This document shows, in pieces, positions 4,172 through 19,305 of a stretch of DNA of 35,653 nucleotides. The stretch comes from Balneolaceae bacterium. Its GTDB lineage: Bacteria > Bacteroidota > Rhodothermia > Balneolales > Balneolaceae. The first letter of the stretch is position 1, and the number at the start of each line of letters is the position of its first letter. The stretch lies in NCBI GenBank assembly GCA_020832415.1, contig JAFIES010000053.1, forward strand, positions 1 through 35,653. Reading direction: 5' to 3'. The position numbers and the translations under genes were made by a program. The notes under the pieces are model-generated. The model was not told the DNA's origin. It searched no databases and saw only the letters and a list, made by a program, of their open reading frames with translations.

Positions 4172-5742
<1,571 letters not shown>

Positions 5743-8571: not shown

Positions 8572-11079
8572 TTAATCATGCATCATTTTCTTGTCTTCAA
8601 GAACCTGAACCATAGATGGCAGGAATGTAAGCGCAGTGAAGAGCGTCATTCCAATTCCTACTACGGCCATAACACCAATGGATTGCAAACCGGGGTGATT
8701 TGTAAAAAGTAGTCCGGCAAAACCCATCATTGTTGTGAAAGAGCCAATTGTGATATGCTGACCGGTACTTCGGAGTACTTCCCACATGTTCTTTTTACCC
8801 TCATCCCGAAACCTGTGTGCAAGGTGAACACCGTTATCACAGCCAATTCCAAGCACGGCAGGCAGTACCACCAAATTGTAGAAATTAAATTTAAGGCCAA
8901 AAATCATCATGATTCCAAACAGCCACAACAATCCAATAATGAGCGGAATGAGTGCAATGAGCGACCATCGCAGATTGCCAAACGAGAAATAAATGAAGAT
9001 AAAGACAATGACAAACGTGGCTGCAACCATATAAGGACTTTCTGCACGCATCAGCTCCAGCATAGATGCCGCTACTATCGAAGTACTTGCAGCGTGATAA
9101 ACTCGGCCGTTTTCAAGGGTTACTTCGGAGATTTCATCCTTAAAAGCAATCGACTTTAAGCCGTCTGATAATCCCTGATTGGGGTAAACTATAACAAAAC
9201 GTCCAATTTCCCCTTCTCTGGTTGTGAACCGATTCTTCAAAAATTCGGGTATCAAATCTTCATTAAGCGGCTCTGTTGTTTGTGATCCGCGCCTGAGAAT
9301 ATCGAGTGTTTCACTCTCCTGCCCCACTATAAAGCTGTTCTGCAGCAGACGCCTTACTTCAGCAATATATTGAAGTTTTTCATTGGCAAGCTCCTGATTC
9401 GGCGGAAACCGCTCCTGAAGGGCCTCAACATCATGAATCATTGTATTGGGGTTGGAACGCTGTCGCTCCCGAAGAATCTCAAGAACTTCAAATACATCAT
9501 CGTCATTATCGGCAATAATGTATGCTGGGTTTCGGCGTGAGCTCTCATTCACGCCACTGGCGAACTCCCTGAACTGCTCATACTCTTCAAAAACAGGCTC
9601 CAAATTCCCAAATTGATACTCGAACTTCAGATTCCAGGATAGTGAGAGTACAATAACGGAGATAAGAACCCCGAAAATTACAATTTGTCGCGAGTAGGGA
9701 TATCTTCGAATAGCCGGTTCAAGCACAACATCATCCGAGCGTTTGATGAGCAAAATCCAGCGCCAGCGGTCAAAAATAACCAGAAGGGCCGGCAAAATGA
9801 ATAACATGCAAAATAGTGCAAGCAGAATACCGGTACCTGCAATAAAACCGAACTCAGAAAATCCTCTGAAGTCGGCAAACATCAAAACAAAAAGAGCTGA
9901 TGCTGTAGTTACTGCGCTCACAAAAATGGCCGTTCCTGTTTTTTGATACGCCTGTAAAACACTCTGCTCCACACCATCACCCGATGCACGGAACTCGATG
10001 TAGCGGGCATAGAAGTGGATCCCATAGTCAATACCAAGACCAAAAAGTATCACGAACAGAACGGAGGTCATTGTGTTCAGCACGCCAAGATGAAAGTAGG
10101 TAATCCCAAACGTCCACATAAGACTGATTACAAGCGGTATGCCAATGATTAAAATGGGGACCGGCATACGAATGATGTGCTGAAATAGTGAATGACGCTG
10201 TTTGTTGCTTGCACCTCTCCTGTAGTTGACCAGCTTTTTGAACCAGAAATAGAACATCACCAACAGAATTACACTGGAAATACCGAGCGCAAAACTGTTG
10301 AAAACATCATCCATGATCGATTCAAATTCATTGAGATGACGCTTCAGGCGGCCACCAAACTGAACTTCCATATCAGGATGGAATGATGCGGGGTCTAATC
10401 GGGAAATGAGTCCGGCATACACCTCAAACATATCCTCGAGATAACGAATATCACTCTGTGAACCGGTTGGGTAAAGAGTTAAGATCACAAGTGTGCTGTC
10501 ATCACTGGCCGGGTATTCCGGCGGAATCAGCTCATCATAACTATCCTGAAACCGGTCGATATTCCGTTCCTCTTCTTCCTCCTCGTCATCAAAATCATCC
10601 AAAAAATCTACAAAAAACGGATTGGCTTCCTGCCGGGCTATTTCAATTTCATCCTCAAGAAATTCAATAATTTCCTGTAATTCAGAAGTTGTGGCAAGAT
10701 AGAGAGCATTATCTTTGAGAACCTCGGTATCGCGTTTAAACTCAGCTCTGTTGAAAAAATTAAAATCGCGCCGCGGGTAGTACAACTGCAAACTCTCTTC
10801 TGCCAGCAGTTCGGCAAATGCCACATTGGCTTCAAAATCGGGCGATTTGATGGCTACTCGCATTTCAGTCTCACCGCCGGCTTGCTCCTGCAACTGGTTT
10901 AACGCCTGCACATTTGGATGAGTAGATGGCAATAGATTGGCAATATCGGTATCAACGGTTAGCTTAACGGCAAAGCTGCCTGCAAAAATTGCAACGGCAA
11001 CCGAAATGGCTACTACCCAAAACGGATGGCGAATATTAAACTGAACTATCGGTTGTAGAAAACTTATAATTTTATGCAT
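8572..11079 (-). CDS. RND-superfamily (MMPL/Patched/HpnN-like) exporter
   Basis: An 835-aa inner-membrane protein with the duplicated RND plan: one TM helix (about 20-40), a large periplasmic loop (about 41-255), five TM helices (about 258-435), a further TM segment near 460, a second loop and a final set of five TM helices. Both halves keep the family motif with a membrane Asp: GLGIDYGIHFYARY (Asp351) and GIGCDNGVHLAHRF (Asp748). Such proteins export lipids or hydrophobic molecules; HpnN moves hopanoids to the outer membrane. No hopanoid gene is seen nearby, so the substrate is open. An unusual run of acidic residues (DDFDDEEEEEER, about 161-172) lies in the first periplasmic loop. It is the first gene of the operon with recO, htrA and the lipoprotein. 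Confidence 0.85.
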   Translation of the reverse strand: MHKIISFLQPIVQFNIRHPFWVVAISVAVAIFAGSFAVKLTVDTDIANLLPSTHPNVQALNQLQEQAGGETEMRVAIKSPDFEANVAFAELLAEESLQLYYPRRDFNFFNRAEFKRDTEVLKDNALYLATTSELQEIIEFLEDEIEIARQEANPFFVDFLDDFDDEEEEEERNIDRFQDSYDELIPPEYPASDDSTLVILTLYPTGSQSDIRYLEDMFEVYAGLISRLDPASFHPDMEVQFGGRLKRHLNEFESIMDDVFNSFALGISSVILLVMFYFWFKKLVNYRRGASNKQRHSLFQHIIRMPVPILIIGIPLVISLMWTFGITYFHLGVLNTMTSVLFVILFGLGIDYGIHFYARYIEFRASGDGVEQSVLQAYQKTGTAIFVSAVTTASALFVLMFADFRGFSEFGFIAGTGILLALFCMLFILPALLVIFDRWRWILLIKRSDDVVLEPAIRRYPYSRQIVIFGVLISVIVLSLSWNLKFEYQFGNLEPVFEEYEQFREFASGVNESSRRNPAYIIADNDDDVFEVLEILRERQRSNPNTMIHDVEALQERFPPNQELANEKLQYIAEVRRLLQNSFIVGQESETLDILRRGSQTTEPLNEDLIPEFLKNRFTTREGEIGRFVIVYPNQGLSDGLKSIAFKDEISEVTLENGRVYHAASTSIVAASMLELMRAESPYMVAATFVIVFIFIYFSFGNLRWSLIALIPLIIGLLWLFGIMMIFGLKFNFYNLVVLPAVLGIGCDNGVHLAHRFRDEGKKNMWEVLRSTGQHITIGSFTTMMGFAGLLFTNHPGLQSIGVMAVVGIGMTLFTALTFLPSMVQVLEDKKMMHD

Positions 11080-11295: not shown

Positions 11296-11772
11296 ATGAC
11301 CCACTCAGAAACACATCGCGGGATGAAAATCATTGGCATTATTCTGATAATTTATGCCGCTCTTGTTGCCACACATGAAGGCGAATTCTGGCCATTCAGT
11401 ATCTACCCAATGTTTTCGCAGGCAGGCAACCCCTGGACACGCGCTATGGTGATGGATATAACCGATCGGTCAGATGATGAAATGTGGGTTCGAACCACCC
11501 TCCAACATAAAGCCGGCGAACCAGTTCCCGTGTTCAACTACGGTGTAGATCAGATCGATTTCTCAAACTTTGTATCAAAAACTGAAGACTGGACAGAATC
11601 GAGAATTCGTGCCATGCATACTATGTTTGGAGGGGAAAATATAGGCGAAAATCGTTGGATGGTTGCGAAAGTTCATGGACGCATGGTTGGCGCTGATTCC
11701 GTAACCGTAGAAATTGAACCACTGATTTTATTGACCGGAGACGATGCAGTTCTAAATCCCGATTACCGATGA
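11296..11772 (+). CDS. Small single-TM membrane protein paired with HTTM-like gene (left pair)
   Basis: A 158-aa protein with one N-terminal TM segment (about residues 11-24 from ATG 11296; a start at ATG 11323, MKIIGIILIIY, is also possible), then a motif EFWPFSIYPMFSQ (about 30-42) and a soluble, probably extracytoplasmic, beta-rich domain ending with SVTVEIEPLILL. I do not recognise a named family. The stop overlaps the ATG of the HTTM-like gene by 4 nt, so the two are translationally coupled. A protein of the same length and plan (TM, then EPWPAFVFPGF) is coupled to a second HTTM-like gene at 13771-14247 in mirror orientation, which suggests that this small protein is an obligate partner of the HTTM enzyme-like protein. 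Confidence 0.7.
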   Translation: MTHSETHRGMKIIGIILIIYAALVATHEGEFWPFSIYPMFSQAGNPWTRAMVMDITDRSDDEMWVRTTLQHKAGEPVPVFNYGVDQIDFSNFVSKTEDWTESRIRAMHTMFGGENIGENRWMVAKVHGRMVGADSVTVEIEPLILLTGDDAVLNPDYR

Positions 11773-12680
11773 GCGAAAAGTGGTATCAAAAAATCGGGAA
11801 AAACCTGTTTGAACCCGACAGGCCTGTATCAAGTGGTGAATTGATCTTTTTCAAGCTTTTTGAACTTTTTGTGGTTTACTACACCATCCGTTTTGTTTGG
11901 GAATGGGCTCTCTACACACAGCTCCGTAATGTTGAAGTGGTTCTGCCGCTTGGAGTGGCGAACTACCTGGATGTAACTCTGTTTTTTGATCATCACATAG
12001 CGCCGGTTTTGGCAGCTATTACTACACTCCTCATTATTTTTTGTTTTTTCAGATATGGCCCAAAATGGCTCTACATGGTGGTTCTGGTTCTGTTTCATCT
12101 GCTCTATGTAATCCGTTTTTCTCAGGGTGAAATACCACACAGCCAAAACCTTATTGGCATGTCAGTATTCTGTTTTGCTGTGGGAGCATGGTTTTTTCCG
12201 GGGAAAGACAGAATGCCGAGATTTGTGCTTGGATCCATCATCTTTTTCATCGGTTTGGGTTACACATCAGCTTTTTTCGCCAAACTTATCGGAACAGGAA
12301 TCCACTGGTTTGATGGGCGCCATCTGTGGCTCTGGATCAGTGAGAAAAGCATCGATATTCTTTCGCGTGATGGAGTGTATCAACCCAACTTTCTTCAGCA
12401 ACTTGCACTGAACAGTACGGCTGTGGCATCAGTCATACTTTTAATCGGATGGTTTACAGAACTAATCGGGTTTACCATGTGGTGGAAAAAGCTGAGGCCA
12501 TACACCACAACGCTTCTCATTTTAATGCATTTTGGCATCACCATGGTTATGAATATCCGGTTTGATGCATTCGTAATGCAACTGATTTTGGTTGGCTATC
12601 CCTGGTATTTACTGATCGATCGCTTCACGAAAGAACTTCCACCCTGGCTCGAAAAGATTATTTATCGGGGGTTTTCCTGA
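11769..12680 (+). CDS. HTTM / vitamin K-dependent gamma-carboxylase-like integral membrane protein (left pair)
   Basis: A 303-aa polytopic membrane protein with about seven hydrophobic segments. It resembles the bacterial HTTM family related to the membrane part of vitamin K-dependent gamma-glutamyl carboxylase (GGCX). Points that match the human enzyme from memory: a Lys after a TM helix followed by Trp (AKLIGTGIHW, Lys172/Trp180; compare GVKKLDADW with the proposed base Lys218), and HFGITMVMNIRFDAF (His254, Asn262; compare FH-x-MN-x3-F). GEIPHSQNL (120-128) corresponds to GKVNHEIVI in the paralogue at 12658-13767. The C-terminal beta domain of GGCX is absent. The reaction is unknown; a carboxylase role should not be assumed. 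Its 3' end overlaps the convergent paralogue by 23 nt. Confidence 0.65.
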   Translation: MSEKWYQKIGKNLFEPDRPVSSGELIFFKLFELFVVYYTIRFVWEWALYTQLRNVEVVLPLGVANYLDVTLFFDHHIAPVLAAITTLLIIFCFFRYGPKWLYMVVLVLFHLLYVIRFSQGEIPHSQNLIGMSVFCFAVGAWFFPGKDRMPRFVLGSIIFFIGLGYTSAFFAKLIGTGIHWFDGRHLWLWISEKSIDILSRDGVYQPNFLQQLALNSTAVASVILLIGWFTELIGFTMWWKKLRPYTTTLLILMHFGITMVMNIRFDAFVMQLILVGYPWYLLIDRFTKELPPWLEKIIYRGFS

Positions 12681-13767
12681 TCTTCTCAATCACCTTTACC
12701 AAAGCTAAAATCACTATAAATAGAAACGCACTGGTCACGACGATAAATTCATGAAGCATCAGGTCTGTCTGGCTTAAAGCATACCCGTTGATACTCACCC
12801 ACTTTATTGGCAGGAAAAGAAACATCAAAATTCCCGTGAAAAGATAAACCGTCCATTTACCCGATTTTGGACCCCGTATTCCTGAGGTTTTTATGGTTGC
12901 TGATCGGATTGATGCATATACTTTATCCCAATTCAGAAATACAACATAAGCCAAAAAGTTGGGTAAAAAAGCGATGTTAAGTGCCATCATCGTAGAGAAA
13001 TGAAAAACTACTGCAAGCCCTACAAACAGCCTGAACCACGAAGCTTTGAAGAGTGCCATAATAAATCCTACTTCAAACAGAACAGTAAACCAATCGAGCA
13101 GTTCCCAGAACAGTGCATGATCAAATCCAACAGCCCGGCCGGCTAACAGTGCCTGCCTTTCGCGTATGAAAAACTGATTAAAAAGATGCCCCTGGGCCGC
13201 CTGCGTTGAAGGGTCTAACCATCCGCCCAATATTTTGGGGAACCCGGCTGTAAACATCATTACCGCGATAAAAAGAGCTAATAGTGTAAGCGGCCAGCTT
13301 TCAGGTTTGATTGAATCTGTTTTTCGCCGGCAATCTACAGAGTACGCAACCCCCCAATTGCTGAACGCCATAATTACCGGCACAAGCGGGATAACGATTT
13401 CGTGATTTACTTTTCCGATGCTGTAAATAAATCCCTGCAGAAAAAGGATTAAGATTCCCGTCAAAATTGAAGCCCACTTTGTGTGATAGCCGATAAGCAT
13501 GGCAAAAAGTGATATCACCAAAATGGTATGCGAAATTTGAAATACTGCCAACGGTGGAAATCCCTCCAGCAATCGCAGCGGGCCGGGCGGTGGCGAATAG
13601 AAATCATTCGGAAGTGATGATAAAAAACCAAAATGGCTCATACTCATGCCGGGTATTAAAAACAGCAATATAAACAGGGATGTAAATATTCTGAGAAGTG
13701 CCAGTCCTTCAGCCGAAACTGTAAATGAGTTAAAAATCCATCTGTCAAATCGCTCTTTATAACTCAT
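12658..13767 (-). CDS. HTTM / vitamin K-dependent gamma-carboxylase-like integral membrane protein (right pair)
   Basis: A 369-aa polytopic membrane protein, homologous in plan to the 303-aa protein at 11769-12680. Shared positions: GKVNHEIVIPL (118-128), AGFPKILGGWLDPSTQ (Lys178, Trp183), DWFTVLFEVGFIMAL (225-239; WFTELIGFTMWW in the paralogue), and FHFSTMMALNIAFLPNF (His256, Asn264). These match the Lys218 region and the FH-x-MN segment of GGCX. It starts 3 nt after the stop of the small TM protein gene, whose partner status it shares with the left pair. The 3' end overlaps the left HTTM gene by 23 nt. The family assignment is good; the substrate and reaction are unknown. Confidence 0.72.
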   Translation of the reverse strand: MSYKERFDRWIFNSFTVSAEGLALLRIFTSLFILLFLIPGMSMSHFGFLSSLPNDFYSPPPGPLRLLEGFPPLAVFQISHTILVISLFAMLIGYHTKWASILTGILILFLQGFIYSIGKVNHEIVIPLVPVIMAFSNWGVAYSVDCRRKTDSIKPESWPLTLLALFIAVMMFTAGFPKILGGWLDPSTQAAQGHLFNQFFIRERQALLAGRAVGFDHALFWELLDWFTVLFEVGFIMALFKASWFRLFVGLAVVFHFSTMMALNIAFLPNFLAYVVFLNWDKVYASIRSATIKTSGIRGPKSGKWTVYLFTGILMFLFLPIKWVSINGYALSQTDLMLHEFIVVTSAFLFIVILALVKVIEKIRKTPDK

Positions 13768-13770
13768 TTA

Positions 13771-14247
13771 TCAAAAGAGTATGGTTATTCGGCCGGTTTC
13801 TATGGCCATATCAAGAACAGCACCATCCCCGGTTTGGCGATAGTACTCAGTCAGTTCGATGATATGCATTGCATTGGGGGTAAATCCGGCAATATCGGCA
13901 GCATTTGATCTCAGCCACGCTTTGCCATCTTCAGAGATATTTTGAACCGATTCATCATCAGAGAAATGTGTGCGTACAAAACCGGGTATTTGTGAAAGCG
14001 GAATTTCAGGGAAGAGCACCTGTGGACTCATGTCATGCGATCGCTGGCGATGGACAGTTTCAACATCAAAAACAGTTCGTGTAATTTCGAAACCATCATC
14101 ATACACATACACACTTTTAAAGCCCGGGAATACAAATGCCGGCCAAGGTTCTGCATCGTAGTAACCAACAATACCAACTACAGCATACTGAAGCGGCAGA
14201 TAGATAAGCAGCGCGATGAAAAGTGTTCGAACAGTTTTTCTGGACAT
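13771..14247 (-). CDS. Small single-TM membrane protein paired with HTTM-like gene (right pair)
   Basis: A 158-aa protein, exactly the length of the small protein of the left pair. It has an N-terminal TM segment (about residues 8-29), then EPWPAFVFPGFKSV (about 33-46), which matches EFWPFSIYPMFSQ of the left protein, and a soluble domain ending in the hydrophobic strand GRITILF. No named family is recognised. It lies 3 nt upstream of the HTTM-like gene and is divergent from the glycosyltransferase gene at 14363. The overall sequence similarity to its mirror partner is low outside the W-P-x-F region, so the duplication, if it is one, is old. Confidence 0.7.
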   Translation of the reverse strand: MSRKTVRTLFIALLIYLPLQYAVVGIVGYYDAEPWPAFVFPGFKSVYVYDDGFEITRTVFDVETVHRQRSHDMSPQVLFPEIPLSQIPGFVRTHFSDDESVQNISEDGKAWLRSNAADIAGFTPNAMHIIELTEYYRQTGDGAVLDMAIETGRITILF

Positions 14248-14362: not shown

Positions 14363-15475
14363 ATGGCTTCTGTACTGCACTACAAAACAAATTTTCTGAA
14401 CAGTTCAGAAACGTTTATTCATCGACTTGTGAGTAATCATCAGCGATATACACCGGCTGCACTTTGCTACAGAAAAAAAGATTTCTGTGCCGGCCTGCCC
14501 GTTTTTGAAGTGCCTAAAAAAGGTATGGATGGTTTTTTGAATGTTACCTCATTTCACCTTAACCGGCCATTACCTTTTTACAGTAAATCCATTCGGGAGC
14601 TCAAACCGGATGTGATACATGGCCATTTTGGGTATGATGGATACAAGATTCTTTCGATTGCCTGTGATGAAAAGATCCCTCTTGTTGTGAGTTTTTACGG
14701 TTCAGATGTCTCCAGATTGCCAAATGAGTTCGGCTGGAAAAGCAGATATCGAAAACTGGCTCAATATGGATCTCATTTTATTGCAGCATCTGAATTCATG
14801 AAGAAACAGCTGATGGATCTCGGATTCCCTTCAGAGAAAATCAGTGTGATCTATTTTGGCCTTGATCTCGATGAATTACGTTTTAAAAATAAATCGTTCC
14901 CGGATCTAAGGATATTGATGGCCGGCAGGCTGGTTGAAAAGAAAGGATTTGAATATGCACTTCAGGCAATTTCCATTCTGAAATCACGAGGGTTTGAACT
15001 ACCTGTTACAATTTTTGGTGATGGCCCGCTTCTTATAGTACTCAAAGATATAGCAGCAGAATCGGGTATTGAAAATCAGATTCAGTTCAAAGGGTTTCAG
15101 CCTGTTTCTGAGATCATCAAAGCACATGACAGTCACTCTATCTTTTTGGCTCCAAGCGTTACTGCATCCGACGGAGATATGGAAGGTTTGCCCAACACCA
15201 TTCTCGAAGCGATGGCAAAAGGAACACCCGTAGTTTCTACAAAACATGCGGCCATTCCGGAAGCTGTCGTTCATCAAAAATCAGGATTTCTTGTTGAAGA
15301 GAGAGATTCAGAAGCTATTGCAGATTGCATCGAAGAGATCATTCAAAATAAGCTTTCACTAATTGATATTGCAGAAAATGCCAGGCAGGTAATTGAAAAA
15401 ACATTCAGCATCGATCATATGGCAGAACGAGTTGAAGAAGTTTATGATCTGGCAGTTTCCGGCGGTGATAGGTAG
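14363..15475 (+). CDS. Glycosyltransferase family 4 (GT-B fold)
   Basis: A 370-aa cytoplasmic, probably membrane-associated glycosyltransferase. The N-terminal Rossmann half has KPDVIHGHFGYDGYKIL (about 81-97) and VSFYGSDVSRLPNEF (about 109-123). The C-terminal half has ILMAGRLVEKKGFEYAL (184-200), IFGDGPL (217-223) and the nucleotide-sugar binding E-x7-E motif in MEGLPNTILEAMAKGTPVV (Glu274, Glu282). This is a retaining GT4 pattern. The donor and acceptor sugars cannot be read from sequence. Its neighbours are a flippase and two more transferases, so a role in surface polysaccharide assembly is likely. It is convergent with the flippase gene (3 nt between stops). A 12-codon ORF (14324-14362) abuts its start but would overlap the predicted transcription start. 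Confidence 0.9.
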   Translation: MASVLHYKTNFLNSSETFIHRLVSNHQRYTPAALCYRKKDFCAGLPVFEVPKKGMDGFLNVTSFHLNRPLPFYSKSIRELKPDVIHGHFGYDGYKILSIACDEKIPLVVSFYGSDVSRLPNEFGWKSRYRKLAQYGSHFIAASEFMKKQLMDLGFPSEKISVIYFGLDLDELRFKNKSFPDLRILMAGRLVEKKGFEYALQAISILKSRGFELPVTIFGDGPLLIVLKDIAAESGIENQIQFKGFQPVSEIIKAHDSHSIFLAPSVTASDGDMEGLPNTILEAMAKGTPVVSTKHAAIPEAVVHQKSGFLVEERDSEAIADCIEEIIQNKLSLIDIAENARQVIEKTFSIDHMAERVEEVYDLAVSGGDR

Positions 15476-15478
15476 ACG

Positions 15479-16993
15479 TTATCTCAAAAACTTAAGTGAC
15501 AACCACTCTTTCAGTTTTTTCCAATCATCCCCTGATATTACCCCAAATGCAGTGCCTATAACTGCGAACAAGGCCAAAAATGTGAAGAGACTGAATGTGA
15601 GACCGGCAAGGGCATTTTCTGCAGGTATTAACACTACCCTGCTGTACCAAACCGGCAATGCCACTACAAAAGCAATTCCAAGAACTTTCAGATAGAATGG
15701 GAAGGGTAAGACTTTTCGGGCAGGAAGCTGCATATGGCCGCCTATTCGTCGTAAAGTGATGATCCAGTTGTAAAAATTTGCGATAAACGTACCGGCTGCA
15801 GTACCAATAATTCCAAAATAGATGGTAAGTGGTATACTCAAAATAATGTTTGCAAGCACCAGATTTAAACTCAGATAAAATACACCTTTCGTATCACCAA
15901 AAGCCTGTAGAATACTGCCATAATTGGTAACTCTTAATAATACAATAAGATTAAAAATCTGAAAAGGAATCACCGAATTTCGGTATTCAGTCCCTTCTGA
16001 CTCAGCTACAATCGCAATTAAATCCGATGCGATAATTATTGAAGCAACTGTTAGCGGCACTACCATAAGGCTGACTTTTTCAACCCCTTTGTACCACAGA
16101 GCGAGAAGCTCCTCTTTTTTATTTTCAAGCTGAAATGCCACATACCTGCTGATGAGAACAGTACCCACAGCAAATGGAATTACACGAATGATGGGTACTT
16201 CCTGCGCGCCAATGGTGTATTCCGCATATGCCGAAGCCGGTAATAATATAGACACTACAAATTTATCGGTATATCGATTGATTTTGTTAACCAGTGATGA
16301 AAGCCCGAGAGGGATGGCAAAGTCGGCCTGTTGTTTCACAGTTACCGTTGAGTCTGCCATTTTCCCTTCAGGAAGAACAATTTTCATCAGAATCCAGGAA
16401 CCAACAAACCGTATTACGGCATAAAAGGTGAGCCCATAAACAGCTGCTTCAAGTCCAAATCCTAAAGCCAGTGGCCCTACAAGACAAACCAGTGTTAGCA
16501 TACTGGTGATCATTTCATACCAGGCAGAATCTCTCTGTCGATCTAATGCGAGCAGAATATTTGTGACAGGCCAGGTTGGGATTTCCAGCAGAACAACAAG
16601 TGCCATAAACGGCAATAAGTACTGAATCTGCGCGATACTTTCCGAATCCCATTGCGGAAGGATGGCCGGAACAACCAGGCTTACCAGCAGAACAACAGCT
16701 CCTGCAATAAGAGCGGTTGCTCCAAGAATCGCTGTGGTTTGAAGCACAAACCCACGTTTTGCACTACCGGATACCCGCTCAAAGTAGTAAAAGACGCTAT
16801 CGGGAAACCCAAGTGTGGCAACATTTCTCGCAATCTCATGGATCATTAGCAGGTAACCGATAATTGCGAAATCGGTTTTTGACAAGATTTGAATGGTGGC
16901 AATTACAATTGCAAGATCGATAACCGTTGTAATGATTCTCGCGAAGACAACCACACCGGTTTTTTCCGTGAGATTTGTGGATCTACCTGGCAT
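15479..16993 (-). CDS. Oligosaccharide flippase (Wzx/MOP superfamily)
   Basis: A 504-aa integral membrane protein with about 12-14 hydrophobic segments spread evenly over the full length, the pattern of MOP-superfamily polysaccharide exporters. The N-terminus (LTEKTGVVVFARIITTVID) and the segment SSLVNKINRYTDKFVVSILL (about 231-250) are typical of Wzx-like flippases, which move lipid-linked oligosaccharides across the inner membrane. Its ATG lies inside the 3' end of the glycosyltransferase gene upstream (11-nt overlap, 16983-16993), so the two are likely co-translated. The repeat unit transported is unknown. A MATE-type drug exporter is an alternative but does not fit the neighbours. Confidence 0.82.
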   Translation of the reverse strand: MPGRSTNLTEKTGVVVFARIITTVIDLAIVIATIQILSKTDFAIIGYLLMIHEIARNVATLGFPDSVFYYFERVSGSAKRGFVLQTTAILGATALIAGAVVLLVSLVVPAILPQWDSESIAQIQYLLPFMALVVLLEIPTWPVTNILLALDRQRDSAWYEMITSMLTLVCLVGPLALGFGLEAAVYGLTFYAVIRFVGSWILMKIVLPEGKMADSTVTVKQQADFAIPLGLSSLVNKINRYTDKFVVSILLPASAYAEYTIGAQEVPIIRVIPFAVGTVLISRYVAFQLENKKEELLALWYKGVEKVSLMVVPLTVASIIIASDLIAIVAESEGTEYRNSVIPFQIFNLIVLLRVTNYGSILQAFGDTKGVFYLSLNLVLANIILSIPLTIYFGIIGTAAGTFIANFYNWIITLRRIGGHMQLPARKVLPFPFYLKVLGIAFVVALPVWYSRVVLIPAENALAGLTFSLFTFLALFAVIGTAFGVISGDDWKKLKEWLSLKFLR

Positions 16994-18327: not shown

Positions 18328-19305
18328 TTACTTCTCTGTTAATTCTCGCCAGCAGGATTCAGAAAATGATTTGAGTGCTTCTTTTTGATGCATCCATCCA
18401 AAATGCAGGCAGTATGGAGTAACATACAAATGATCACCCTTTCCGGGTAACATAGAGAGAATACGAATCAAAATCTTTTGGATTGTTCGATTTTTCAGTC
18501 CTTTTAAATCATACACAAACTGATCGCTGTAATACAGACACTTTACATCTTCAAAACCTGTACTGTATTGCGTAAAACTTTCAATAAAATCGAGCTGCGG
18601 GCTTTCATATCCATTAAGCCATGGATATACCTGTATTTTACTGCTGGCCATAGCCATAGCCAAACTCCATTCACAACTCTCCTCTTCCCTTCCTTTTTCT
18701 TCTCTTCGGCTTCGAAAGTGGGTTTCATCCTGCCGTTTAAAAAATAACTTCGAAAGTTCACAAATCTTTGATGTTTCATCCTTGTCTGCAGCGTATATCA
18801 TTCCGGCCTGAACACGACTAAGATAGCTCAATCCAAAGCGTTTCAGCGTTCTTTCCCGCCGCCTCATGAGAATATCAATCAATACGGAAAACCCTTTTGG
18901 CCCGCCAAAAAAAACATCCGCTTTTTCGTTACCTGTTATGGTAAATTTATAAGGAGAGAGTGATTGCCAGAGTGTATTGGGGTCCCTGCACCACACGATA
19001 TCTGAATCGAGAATCAGGTTTTTTTCGAATGGCATAAACATGTGGATGTTATGTTTAAAACCGGGAATAGAAGCATGTTCTGCAGAAAGCACTTCTACAC
19101 TTTTAAACAAGTATTCAAGTGAGTATTTGTCCAAAAGTTTTTGATGTTCCTTTGAACAGTATAGAATAACAGGCCTTTTCGTATCGTATCGGCGCAATGT
19201 TATTACACTTGAAATTACATTTTTTAAATACCCGGCAGATCCATAAGAAGCATACACATACCCTTCGGGAGATTTTGTCTGAAAATTGGTAAGATGTTCA
19301 TTCAT
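18328..19305 (-). CDS. Putative GT-A-fold glycosyltransferase
   Basis: A 325-aa protein of uncertain family. The N-terminal part reads like a nucleotide-diphospho-sugar transferase: GYVYASYGSAGYLKNVISSV (15-34), RRYDTKRPVILYCSK (38-52) and, near residues 97-109, NLILDSDIVWCRD, where Asp100-Ser-Asp102 is a candidate metal-binding DxD. The C-terminal third (VTPYCLHFGWMHQKEALKSF) contains a His-Phe-Gly-Trp segment where GT8-like enzymes often keep a metal-binding His. It is first in a minus-strand group with a GT4-like gene and a flippase, supporting a role in polysaccharide synthesis. The codon and charge make-up (REEKGREEES near 205-214) is locally unusual. No named family could be fixed. Confidence 0.55.
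   Translation of the reverse strand: MNEHLTNFQTKSPEGYVYASYGSAGYLKNVISSVITLRRYDTKRPVILYCSKEHQKLLDKYSLEYLFKSVEVLSAEHASIPGFKHNIHMFMPFEKNLILDSDIVWCRDPNTLWQSLSPYKFTITGNEKADVFFGGPKGFSVLIDILMRRRERTLKRFGLSYLSRVQAGMIYAADKDETSKICELSKLFFKRQDETHFRSRREEKGREEESCEWSLAMAMASSKIQVYPWLNGYESPQLDFIESFTQYSTGFEDVKCLYYSDQFVYDLKGLKNRTIQKILIRILSMLPGKGDHLYVTPYCLHFGWMHQKEALKSFSESCWRELTEK

What the first reader, a model, noticed from the sequence alone, without database searches (positions are those of the whole stretch)
11296..14247. Mirror-image convergent pairs of a 158-aa TM protein and a gamma-carboxylase-like HTTM protein
Two two-gene modules face each other with a 23-nt overlap of their 3' ends. Each module has a 158-aa protein with one N-terminal TM helix and a W-P-x-F-x2-x-P-x-F motif (EFWPFSIYPMF and EPWPAFVFPGF), tightly coupled (4-nt overlap or 3-nt gap) to a polytopic HTTM-like protein. 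Both HTTM proteins keep a Lys...Trp and an FH/MH...N...F segment that align by eye with the Lys218 region and FH-x-MN segment of vitamin K-dependent gamma-carboxylase. Retention of the proposed catalytic Lys in both, and a dedicated small partner in each, suggest a two-component membrane redox or carboxylase-like system, perhaps heteromeric. I know of no described role for such pairs.
Basis: partly seen in the sequence, partly recalled or inferred. Interest (0 to 1): 0.75.

Follow-up and report, generated by a model that had tools for sequence, protein, structure and literature searches.

The report
Twin split GGCX-like membrane enzyme pairs
Two neighbouring gene pairs in a salt-lake bacterium each encode a distant relative of the human vitamin K-dependent carboxylase plus a small membrane-anchored partner; the key catalytic lysine and histidine are kept, and the two pairs appear to work as one system of unknown function near surface-sugar genes.

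Summary
In detail: AS 11296-11772 (+), AL 11769-12680 (+), BL 12658-13767 (-) and BS 13771-14247 (-), with a 4-nt overlap, a 3-nt gap and a 23-nt overlap of the 3' ends. All four are real, conserved genes of a Balneolaceae genome. BL is an HTTM/GGCX-type membrane protein: orthologues pass Pfam's HTTM cut-off, its profile matches GGCX-like HTTM proteins at E=9e-28, and its AlphaFold2 model matches GGCX cryo-EM structures at Z 16 (next unrelated 6.8). K178, N121-H122, W183 and F255-H256 align with GGCX K218, N159-H160, W223 and F286-H287. AL is a diverged paralogue (E=2e-11) keeping the Lys, both His and the Trp but not the Asn. Small and large partners are paired in every complete locus examined. 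The modules co-occur, form single operons elsewhere, and in five Salinibacter-like genomes BL and AS are one polypeptide. They lie in glycan/lipid-export loci. Closest known pair by architecture is SdpA/SdpB, but neither SdpB nor SdpC is found here. Best reading: a two-module, split GGCX-type, probably quinone-dependent membrane enzyme acting at the periplasmic face on an unknown, perhaps glycan-linked, substrate. Fold and residues are shown; chemistry and substrate are inferred.

The parts
11296..11772 (+). AS: 158-aa small partner of module A; one N-terminal TM helix (about residues 9-27), motif GEFWPFSIYPMFSQAGNPWTRA at the membrane exit, then a predicted periplasmic domain
   Evidence: directly upstream of AL in every complete locus
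11769..12680 (+). AL: 303-aa polytopic HTTM-like protein of module A; K172 (=GGCX K218), H124 (=H160), W180 (=W223), H254 (=H287); P123 replaces N159; ends soon after the helix equivalent to TM8
12658..13767 (-). BL: 369-aa HTTM/GGCX-fold protein of module B; K178 (=K218), N121-H122 (=N159-H160), W183 (=W223), F255-H256 (=F286-H287)
13771..14247 (-). BS: 158-aa small partner of module B; one TM helix, motif EPWPAFVFPGF, predicted beta-beta-alpha(s)-beta-beta periplasmic domain
12658..12680 (.). 23-nt overlap of the 3' ends of AL and BL; not conserved
14363..15475 (+). GT4-family glycosyltransferase; conserved neighbour of module B, and first gene of the operon GT-BS-[BL:AS]-AL in a Salinibacter-like genome (overlaps BS by 4 nt)
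8572..11079 (-). HpnN/MMPL-type RND exporter, divergent from AS; conserved neighbour of module A
15479..16993 (-). Wzx-like polysaccharide flippase, conserved in the neighbourhood

Best explanation
Each module is a 'split' GGCX/HTTM-type membrane enzyme: a catalytic transmembrane subunit (AL or BL) plus a single-span subunit (AS or BS) that brings a conserved W-P...P-F loop to the membrane surface and carries a periplasmic domain, where GGCX has its luminal substrate-binding domain on the same chain. The two modules function together, most likely as a hetero-complex AS-AL-BL-BS. By analogy with GGCX, the conserved Lys (K172/K178) would act as the base in a (hydro)quinone pocket lined by the conserved Trp and Phe, with the conserved His (H124/H122) facing the substrate pocket at the periplasmic side; quinol oxidation would then drive chemistry on a substrate delivered by the small subunits. 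Gene context makes a surface glycan or glycolipid, or a protein exported with it, the likeliest target. Shown: genes, pairing, operon and fusion linkage of the modules, BL fold, residue correspondence. Inferred: periplasmic active site, quinone use, carbanion/redox chemistry, role of the small subunits, substrate.
For: BL profile vs GGCX-like bacterial HTTM proteins E=9e-28, one of which matches GGCX at E=5e-40; BL orthologues over the Pfam HTTM cut-off (28.2-39.3 bits vs 27.7); BL model pLDDT 93, pTM 0.91, VIA Z 16.2 over 286 residues with all 16 GGCX entries on top and the next unrelated chain at 6.8, Foldseek prob 1.00. AL vs BL profile E=1.8e-11 over 269 columns (controls E 0.1-1). Residue map; H122, K178, W183, F255, H256 invariant in 39 rows from Balneolia/Rhodothermia, Chryseobacterium, Actinomycetota and Pirellulales. 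Roles of K218, N159/H160, W223, F286 in GGCX from PMC12589487. Pairing: 24/24 BL and 30/30 AL in relatives, 43 of 43 loci not cut by contig ends, reverse check. Module linkage: BS-BL-AS-AL, AS-AL-BS-BL and the BL:AS fusion; 18 of 19 B genomes also have A, Fisher p=1e-6, not corrected for phylogeny. Glycan/export context.
Against: No activity, cofactor or substrate data. AL lacks the N159 equivalent and no AL homologue hits Pfam HTTM, so it may be a non-catalytic partner. Many genomes have A without B, and phyla outside the class have B without A, so each module can act alone. The fusion joins BL to AS, not to its cognate BS. The BS model has no PDB match and its profile match to the GGCX-like C-terminal region is weak (E=7e-4). 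In Chryseobacterium B sits beside an RND pump and EF-Tu, not glycan genes.
Confidence: 0.55

Rival explanations
1. An SdpAB-like maturation pair: the small TM protein and HTTM protein process or modify a secreted peptide or protein substrate, as SdpA/SdpB do for the SDP peptide of Bacillus.
For: Same architecture: single-TM protein with an aromatic motif just after the TM helix, translationally coupled to an HTTM protein; SdpB-like HTTM proteins of Bacteroidota mostly have such an upstream partner; BL and AL profiles match SdpB-like proteins (E=3e-19 and 7e-13). SdpA and SdpB are required to process SdpC (PMC6818787).
Against: The SdpB model gives no match in the own genome and SdpC none; SdpA-like partners do not align with AS/BS profiles; no conserved small secreted gene was seen between the modules; the context is glycan/export, not an immunity gene.
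Confidence: 0.2
2. A true vitamin K/menaquinone-dependent gamma-glutamyl carboxylase, making Gla in exported proteins.
For: BL keeps K218, N159, H160, W223 and F286 equivalents and the GGCX fold.
Against: No luminal propeptide-binding domain on the chain; AL lacks N159; SdpB-like HTTM proteins share the Lys region without known carboxylation; no Gla-type substrate identified.
Confidence: 0.07
3. Non-enzymatic scaffold or transporter accessory: AL/BL are degenerate HTTM proteins used as membrane components of the neighbouring HpnN/MMPL exporter or Wzx pathway.
For: Stable linkage to the RND exporter and flippase genes.
Against: Active-site Lys, His and Trp are invariant, which is not expected of a degenerate scaffold; the linkage to these transporters is lost in other phyla.
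Confidence: 0.13

Closest known systems
Human gamma-glutamyl carboxylase GGCX (vitamin K-dependent carboxylase)
   Same: Transmembrane fold of BL (Z 16); Lys218, Asn159-His160, Trp223, Phe286-His287 equivalents in BL
   Different: BL/AL lack the large luminal propeptide-binding domain; a separate single-span protein is present instead; two paralogous modules; about 15% identity; no evidence of carboxylation
SdpA/SdpB of Bacillus subtilis (TIGR04034/TIGR04033, SDP peptide maturation)
   Same: Small single-TM protein with an aromatic motif after the TM helix plus an HTTM protein, adjacent genes
   Different: Sequence models do not match; no SdpC; two linked modules; different motif (EPWPxFxxPGF / GEFWPFSIYPMF instead of GWAFFT); glycan/export context
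HTTM proteins of linaridin RiPP clusters (e.g. crdG of corynaridin)
   Same: HTTM protein in a bacterial multi-gene modification system (PMC9927463)
   Different: Not compared by sequence here; no linaridin genes recognised in the window
Single-chain bacterial GGCX-like HTTM proteins (about 440-470 aa) of Bacteroidota/Balneolota
   Same: Profile homology to BL at E=9e-28, same Lys and Asn-His
   Different: Carry their own C-terminal soluble domain

Membership tests
HTTM superfamily (PF05090), BL | HTTM domain recognised by the Pfam model in the orthologue family | tested here: met
   7 of 22 BL homologues hit (best 2.9e-11), several over the 27.7-bit cut-off. The window BL itself and most close relatives score below threshold.
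HTTM superfamily (PF05090), BL | Shared transmembrane fold with GGCX | tested here: met
   AlphaFold2 model pTM 0.91; VIA Z 16.2, 286 aligned, rmsd 4.3; Foldseek prob 1.00
HTTM superfamily (PF05090), AL | HTTM homology | tested here: inconclusive
   0 of 19 AL homologues hit Pfam HTTM, but profile-profile homology to BL E=1.8e-11 and to SdpB-like HTTM E=7e-13; direct match to the GGCX-like set only E=1e-3. Treated as a diverged HTTM-like paralogue.
GGCX / vitamin K-dependent carboxylase | Active-site base equivalent to Lys218 | tested here: met
   K178 in BL, K172 in AL; invariant
GGCX / vitamin K-dependent carboxylase | Asn159-His160 substrate-carboxylate site | tested here: inconclusive
   Met in BL (N121-H122; the N is sometimes D in relatives); in AL only the His is kept (P123-H124)
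GGCX / vitamin K-dependent carboxylase | C-terminal luminal propeptide-binding domain on the same chain | tested here: not met
   BL and AL end in or just after transmembrane helices
GGCX / vitamin K-dependent carboxylase | Vitamin K-dependent Glu carboxylation | not testable with these tools
   Needs biochemistry
SdpA/SdpB | SdpB model TIGR04033 match | tested here: not met
   No match at E<=0.001 in the own genome; matches in same-genus genomes lie at other loci
SdpA/SdpB | Adjacent small single-TM protein with aromatic motif after the TM helix | tested here: met
   Architecture only; no profile similarity between SdpA-like partners and AS/BS
SdpA/SdpB | SdpC-type substrate | tested here: not met
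   TIGR04032: no match in the own genome, control B. subtilis matched

The most novel reading that the evidence does not exclude
A heteromeric, four-subunit GGCX-type enzyme that uses menaquinol oxidation to drive carbanion-type chemistry on a cell-surface glycan or glycolipid in the periplasm, with the substrate-binding domain of GGCX split off into separate single-span subunits.
Probability: 0.17. Interest if true: 0.85.

Novelty: new variant of a known kind. Interest (0 to 1): 0.52.

Why it matters
HTTM proteins are widespread in bacteria, but outside vitamin K-dependent carboxylases, SDP maturation and linaridin clusters their chemistry is little described. This system keeps the GGCX catalytic Lys, His, Asn and Trp in a minimal, split, bacterial form and has a natural fusion that ties the two modules together, so it offers a tractable place to ask what reaction the GGCX-type membrane site performs in bacteria and whether single-span partners are a general substitute for GGCX's luminal domain. 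If the link to glycan export is right, it would extend GGCX-type chemistry beyond proteins.

Tried and rejected
Direct Pfam/NCBIfam scans of the four window proteins gave nothing, as did PDB sequence searches with BL and with the AL and BL genus-level profiles; broader alignments were needed. The first AL-BL hhalign with genus-level alignments was weak (E=0.057) and was redone with diverse sets. Small-protein homology: AS vs BS is limited to the TM plus W-P...P-F motif (E=6e-4 to 8e-4); SdpA-like partners do not align with AS or BS. The idea that BS equals the last TM helix plus luminal domain of GGCX has only a weak profile match in the right place; Foldseek/VIA found no clear fold for BS and did not list GGCX, so it stays a hypothesis. 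The mirror layout and 23-nt overlap as functional features were rejected. Apparent small proteins without HTTM neighbours proved to be unrelated regulators, a fragment or a decayed locus. Literature searches for HTTM with SdpB, and for DUF5819, found nothing; only an open-access library was searched.

Full report
OBSERVATION. The four ORFs are present exactly as described: AS 11296-11772 (+), AL 11769-12680 (+), BL 12658-13767 (-), BS 13771-14247 (-). AS/AL overlap by 4 nt, BS/BL are 3 nt apart, and AL/BL overlap by 23 nt at their 3' ends. Both small proteins have one N-terminal hydrophobic helix and the motifs EFWPFSIYPMF and EPWPAFVFPGF. The nearest named relatives are Balneolaceae metagenome-assembled genomes and Rhodohalobacter sulfatireducens.

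THE GENES ARE REAL AND OBLIGATELY PAIRED. In 59 related genomes BL homologues were found in 23 and AL homologues in 36. In the loci examined every BL has BS directly upstream (24/24) and every AL has AS (30/30). In a collection-wide scan for BL (45 loci from Balneolia/Rhodothermia, Chryseobacterium and other Bacteroidota, Actinomycetota and Pirellulales) BS was found upstream in 42 loci by HMM and in one more by eye (L228); the other two loci are cut at the contig end. Conversely, 20 further loci brought in by small-protein hits showed a large partner in every genuine case; the exceptions were two unrelated regulators, one fragment and one decayed locus.

THE TWO MODULES BELONG TOGETHER. In the window's genus they are usually convergent, with the AL/BL distance varying from a 36-nt overlap to over 4 kb, and in some genomes they lie on different contigs. 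In other families of the class they form single operons: BS-BL-AS-AL (Roseithermus, Longimonas) or AS-AL-BS-BL. In five genomes of one genus, BL and AS are one open reading frame of 520-565 codons, in the operon BS-[BL:AS]-AL. Eighteen of 19 B-carrying genomes in a 117-genome class sample also carry A, while A occurs in 53 (Fisher p=1e-6, not corrected for phylogeny).

BL IS A GGCX-FOLD HTTM PROTEIN. Seven of 22 BL homologues hit Pfam HTTM (best 2.9e-11) and several exceed the curated cut-off, although the window protein alone does not. A profile of BL homologues matches single-chain bacterial GGCX-like HTTM proteins at E=9e-28; one of those matches human GGCX at E=5e-40. The AlphaFold2 model of BL (39 sequences; pLDDT 93, pTM 0.91) matches 16 GGCX cryo-EM entries at VIA Z 12-16, best 16.2 with rmsd 4.3 over 286 residues; the next unrelated chain scores 6.8. 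Foldseek gives probability 1.00 for nearly all of the same entries.

AL IS A DIVERGED PARALOGUE. With diverse alignments AL matches BL at E=1.8e-11 over 269 columns, while unrelated families from the same loci, including the polytopic exporter and flippase, score E 0.1-1; it also matches SdpB-like HTTM proteins at E=7e-13. No AL member hits Pfam HTTM. AL was not modelled.

ACTIVE-SITE RESIDUES. By hhalign through the bacterial GGCX-like protein: BL K178 = GGCX K218; N121-H122 = N159-H160; W183 = W223; F255-H256 = F286-H287. AL: K172 = K218; H124 = H160 (P123 in place of N159); W180 = W223; M253-H254 = F286-H287. H122, K178, W183, F255 and H256 are invariant in 39 BL sequences from several phyla; H124, K172, W180 and H254 are invariant in AL. 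In GGCX, K218 is the base that deprotonates the hydroquinone, W223, F286 and H160 line the naphthoquinone pocket, and N159/H160 hold the substrate glutamate (PMC12589487). Hydropathy and charge are compatible with the pocket and the small partners' domains both facing the periplasm; this is a rough inference.

THE SMALL PARTNERS. BS is predicted as one TM helix followed by a beta-beta-alpha(s)-beta-beta domain (pLDDT 85, the motif loop itself poorly predicted). No PDB fold matches clearly. Its profile aligns weakly (E=7e-4) with the region of GGCX-like HTTM proteins that spans the last TM helix and the start of the luminal domain, so it may be the detached equivalent; this is not shown. SdpB-like HTTM proteins of Bacteroidota also mostly have an upstream single-TM protein with a different aromatic motif (GWAFFT, W-x-[LFM]-F-A-P), but these do not align with AS or BS. 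A small single-span partner next to a short HTTM protein is thus a recurring architecture of which SdpA/SdpB is the described example (SdpA and SdpB are required to process SdpC to the SDP peptide, PMC6818787).

CONTEXT. Module A lies next to an HpnN/MMPL-type exporter across several families, often with a DUF3047 protein; module B lies next to a GT4 glycosyltransferase that heads the operon in the fused-gene genome; a Wzx-like flippase, another glycosyltransferase, a conserved unknown, MlaC and an outer-membrane efflux protein follow. In Actinomycetota the B pair lies near polysaccharide pyruvyl transferase, an acyltransferase and a glycosyltransferase. Chryseobacterium B loci lack this context. 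The own genome has 20 GT1-type hits in 3.9 Mb, two of them in this window.

VERDICT. A new variant of a known kind: paired, split HTTM/GGCX-type membrane proteins with the catalytic residues kept, linked as one system by operons and a fusion. Activity, cofactor and substrate are unknown; quinone-dependent chemistry on a glycan-linked substrate is the best-supported guess. SdpAB membership was tested and not met; GGCX (carboxylase) membership fails on the missing luminal domain, though fold and residues argue that BL works like GGCX.

Noticed in passing
L182:1514-3211, L183:1675-3369, L184:1619-3313, L185:2467-4029, L190:2502-4196: Natural fusion of BL and AS in one open reading frame in five genomes of one genus
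   Followed up: yes
window 18328-19305: Conserved 325-aa protein with no Pfam or NCBIfam match, found in the MlaC/OEP/glycosyltransferase/Wzx neighbourhood across the class
   Followed up: partly
window 8572-11079: HpnN-like (hopanoid transporter-type) RND exporter; in many relatives a DUF3047 protein sits between it and AS
   Followed up: partly
window 4339-5742: Scores above the NCBIfam cut-off for tyrosine phenol-lyase (778 vs 721 bits)
   Followed up: no
L109-L127: Most SdpB-like short HTTM proteins of Bacteroidota have an upstream single-TM protein with a W-x-[LFM]-F type motif: a general two-gene HTTM architecture
   Followed up: partly
L308:1810-2336: Decayed copy of the four-gene operon (truncated BS and a fragment of AL)
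   Followed up: no
L243:7986-9078: BL split into two frames in a Chryseobacterium genome; frameshift or sequencing error
   Followed up: no
L284:6680-8273: Second BL/BS copy in genome G011 without an A module beside it
   Followed up: no
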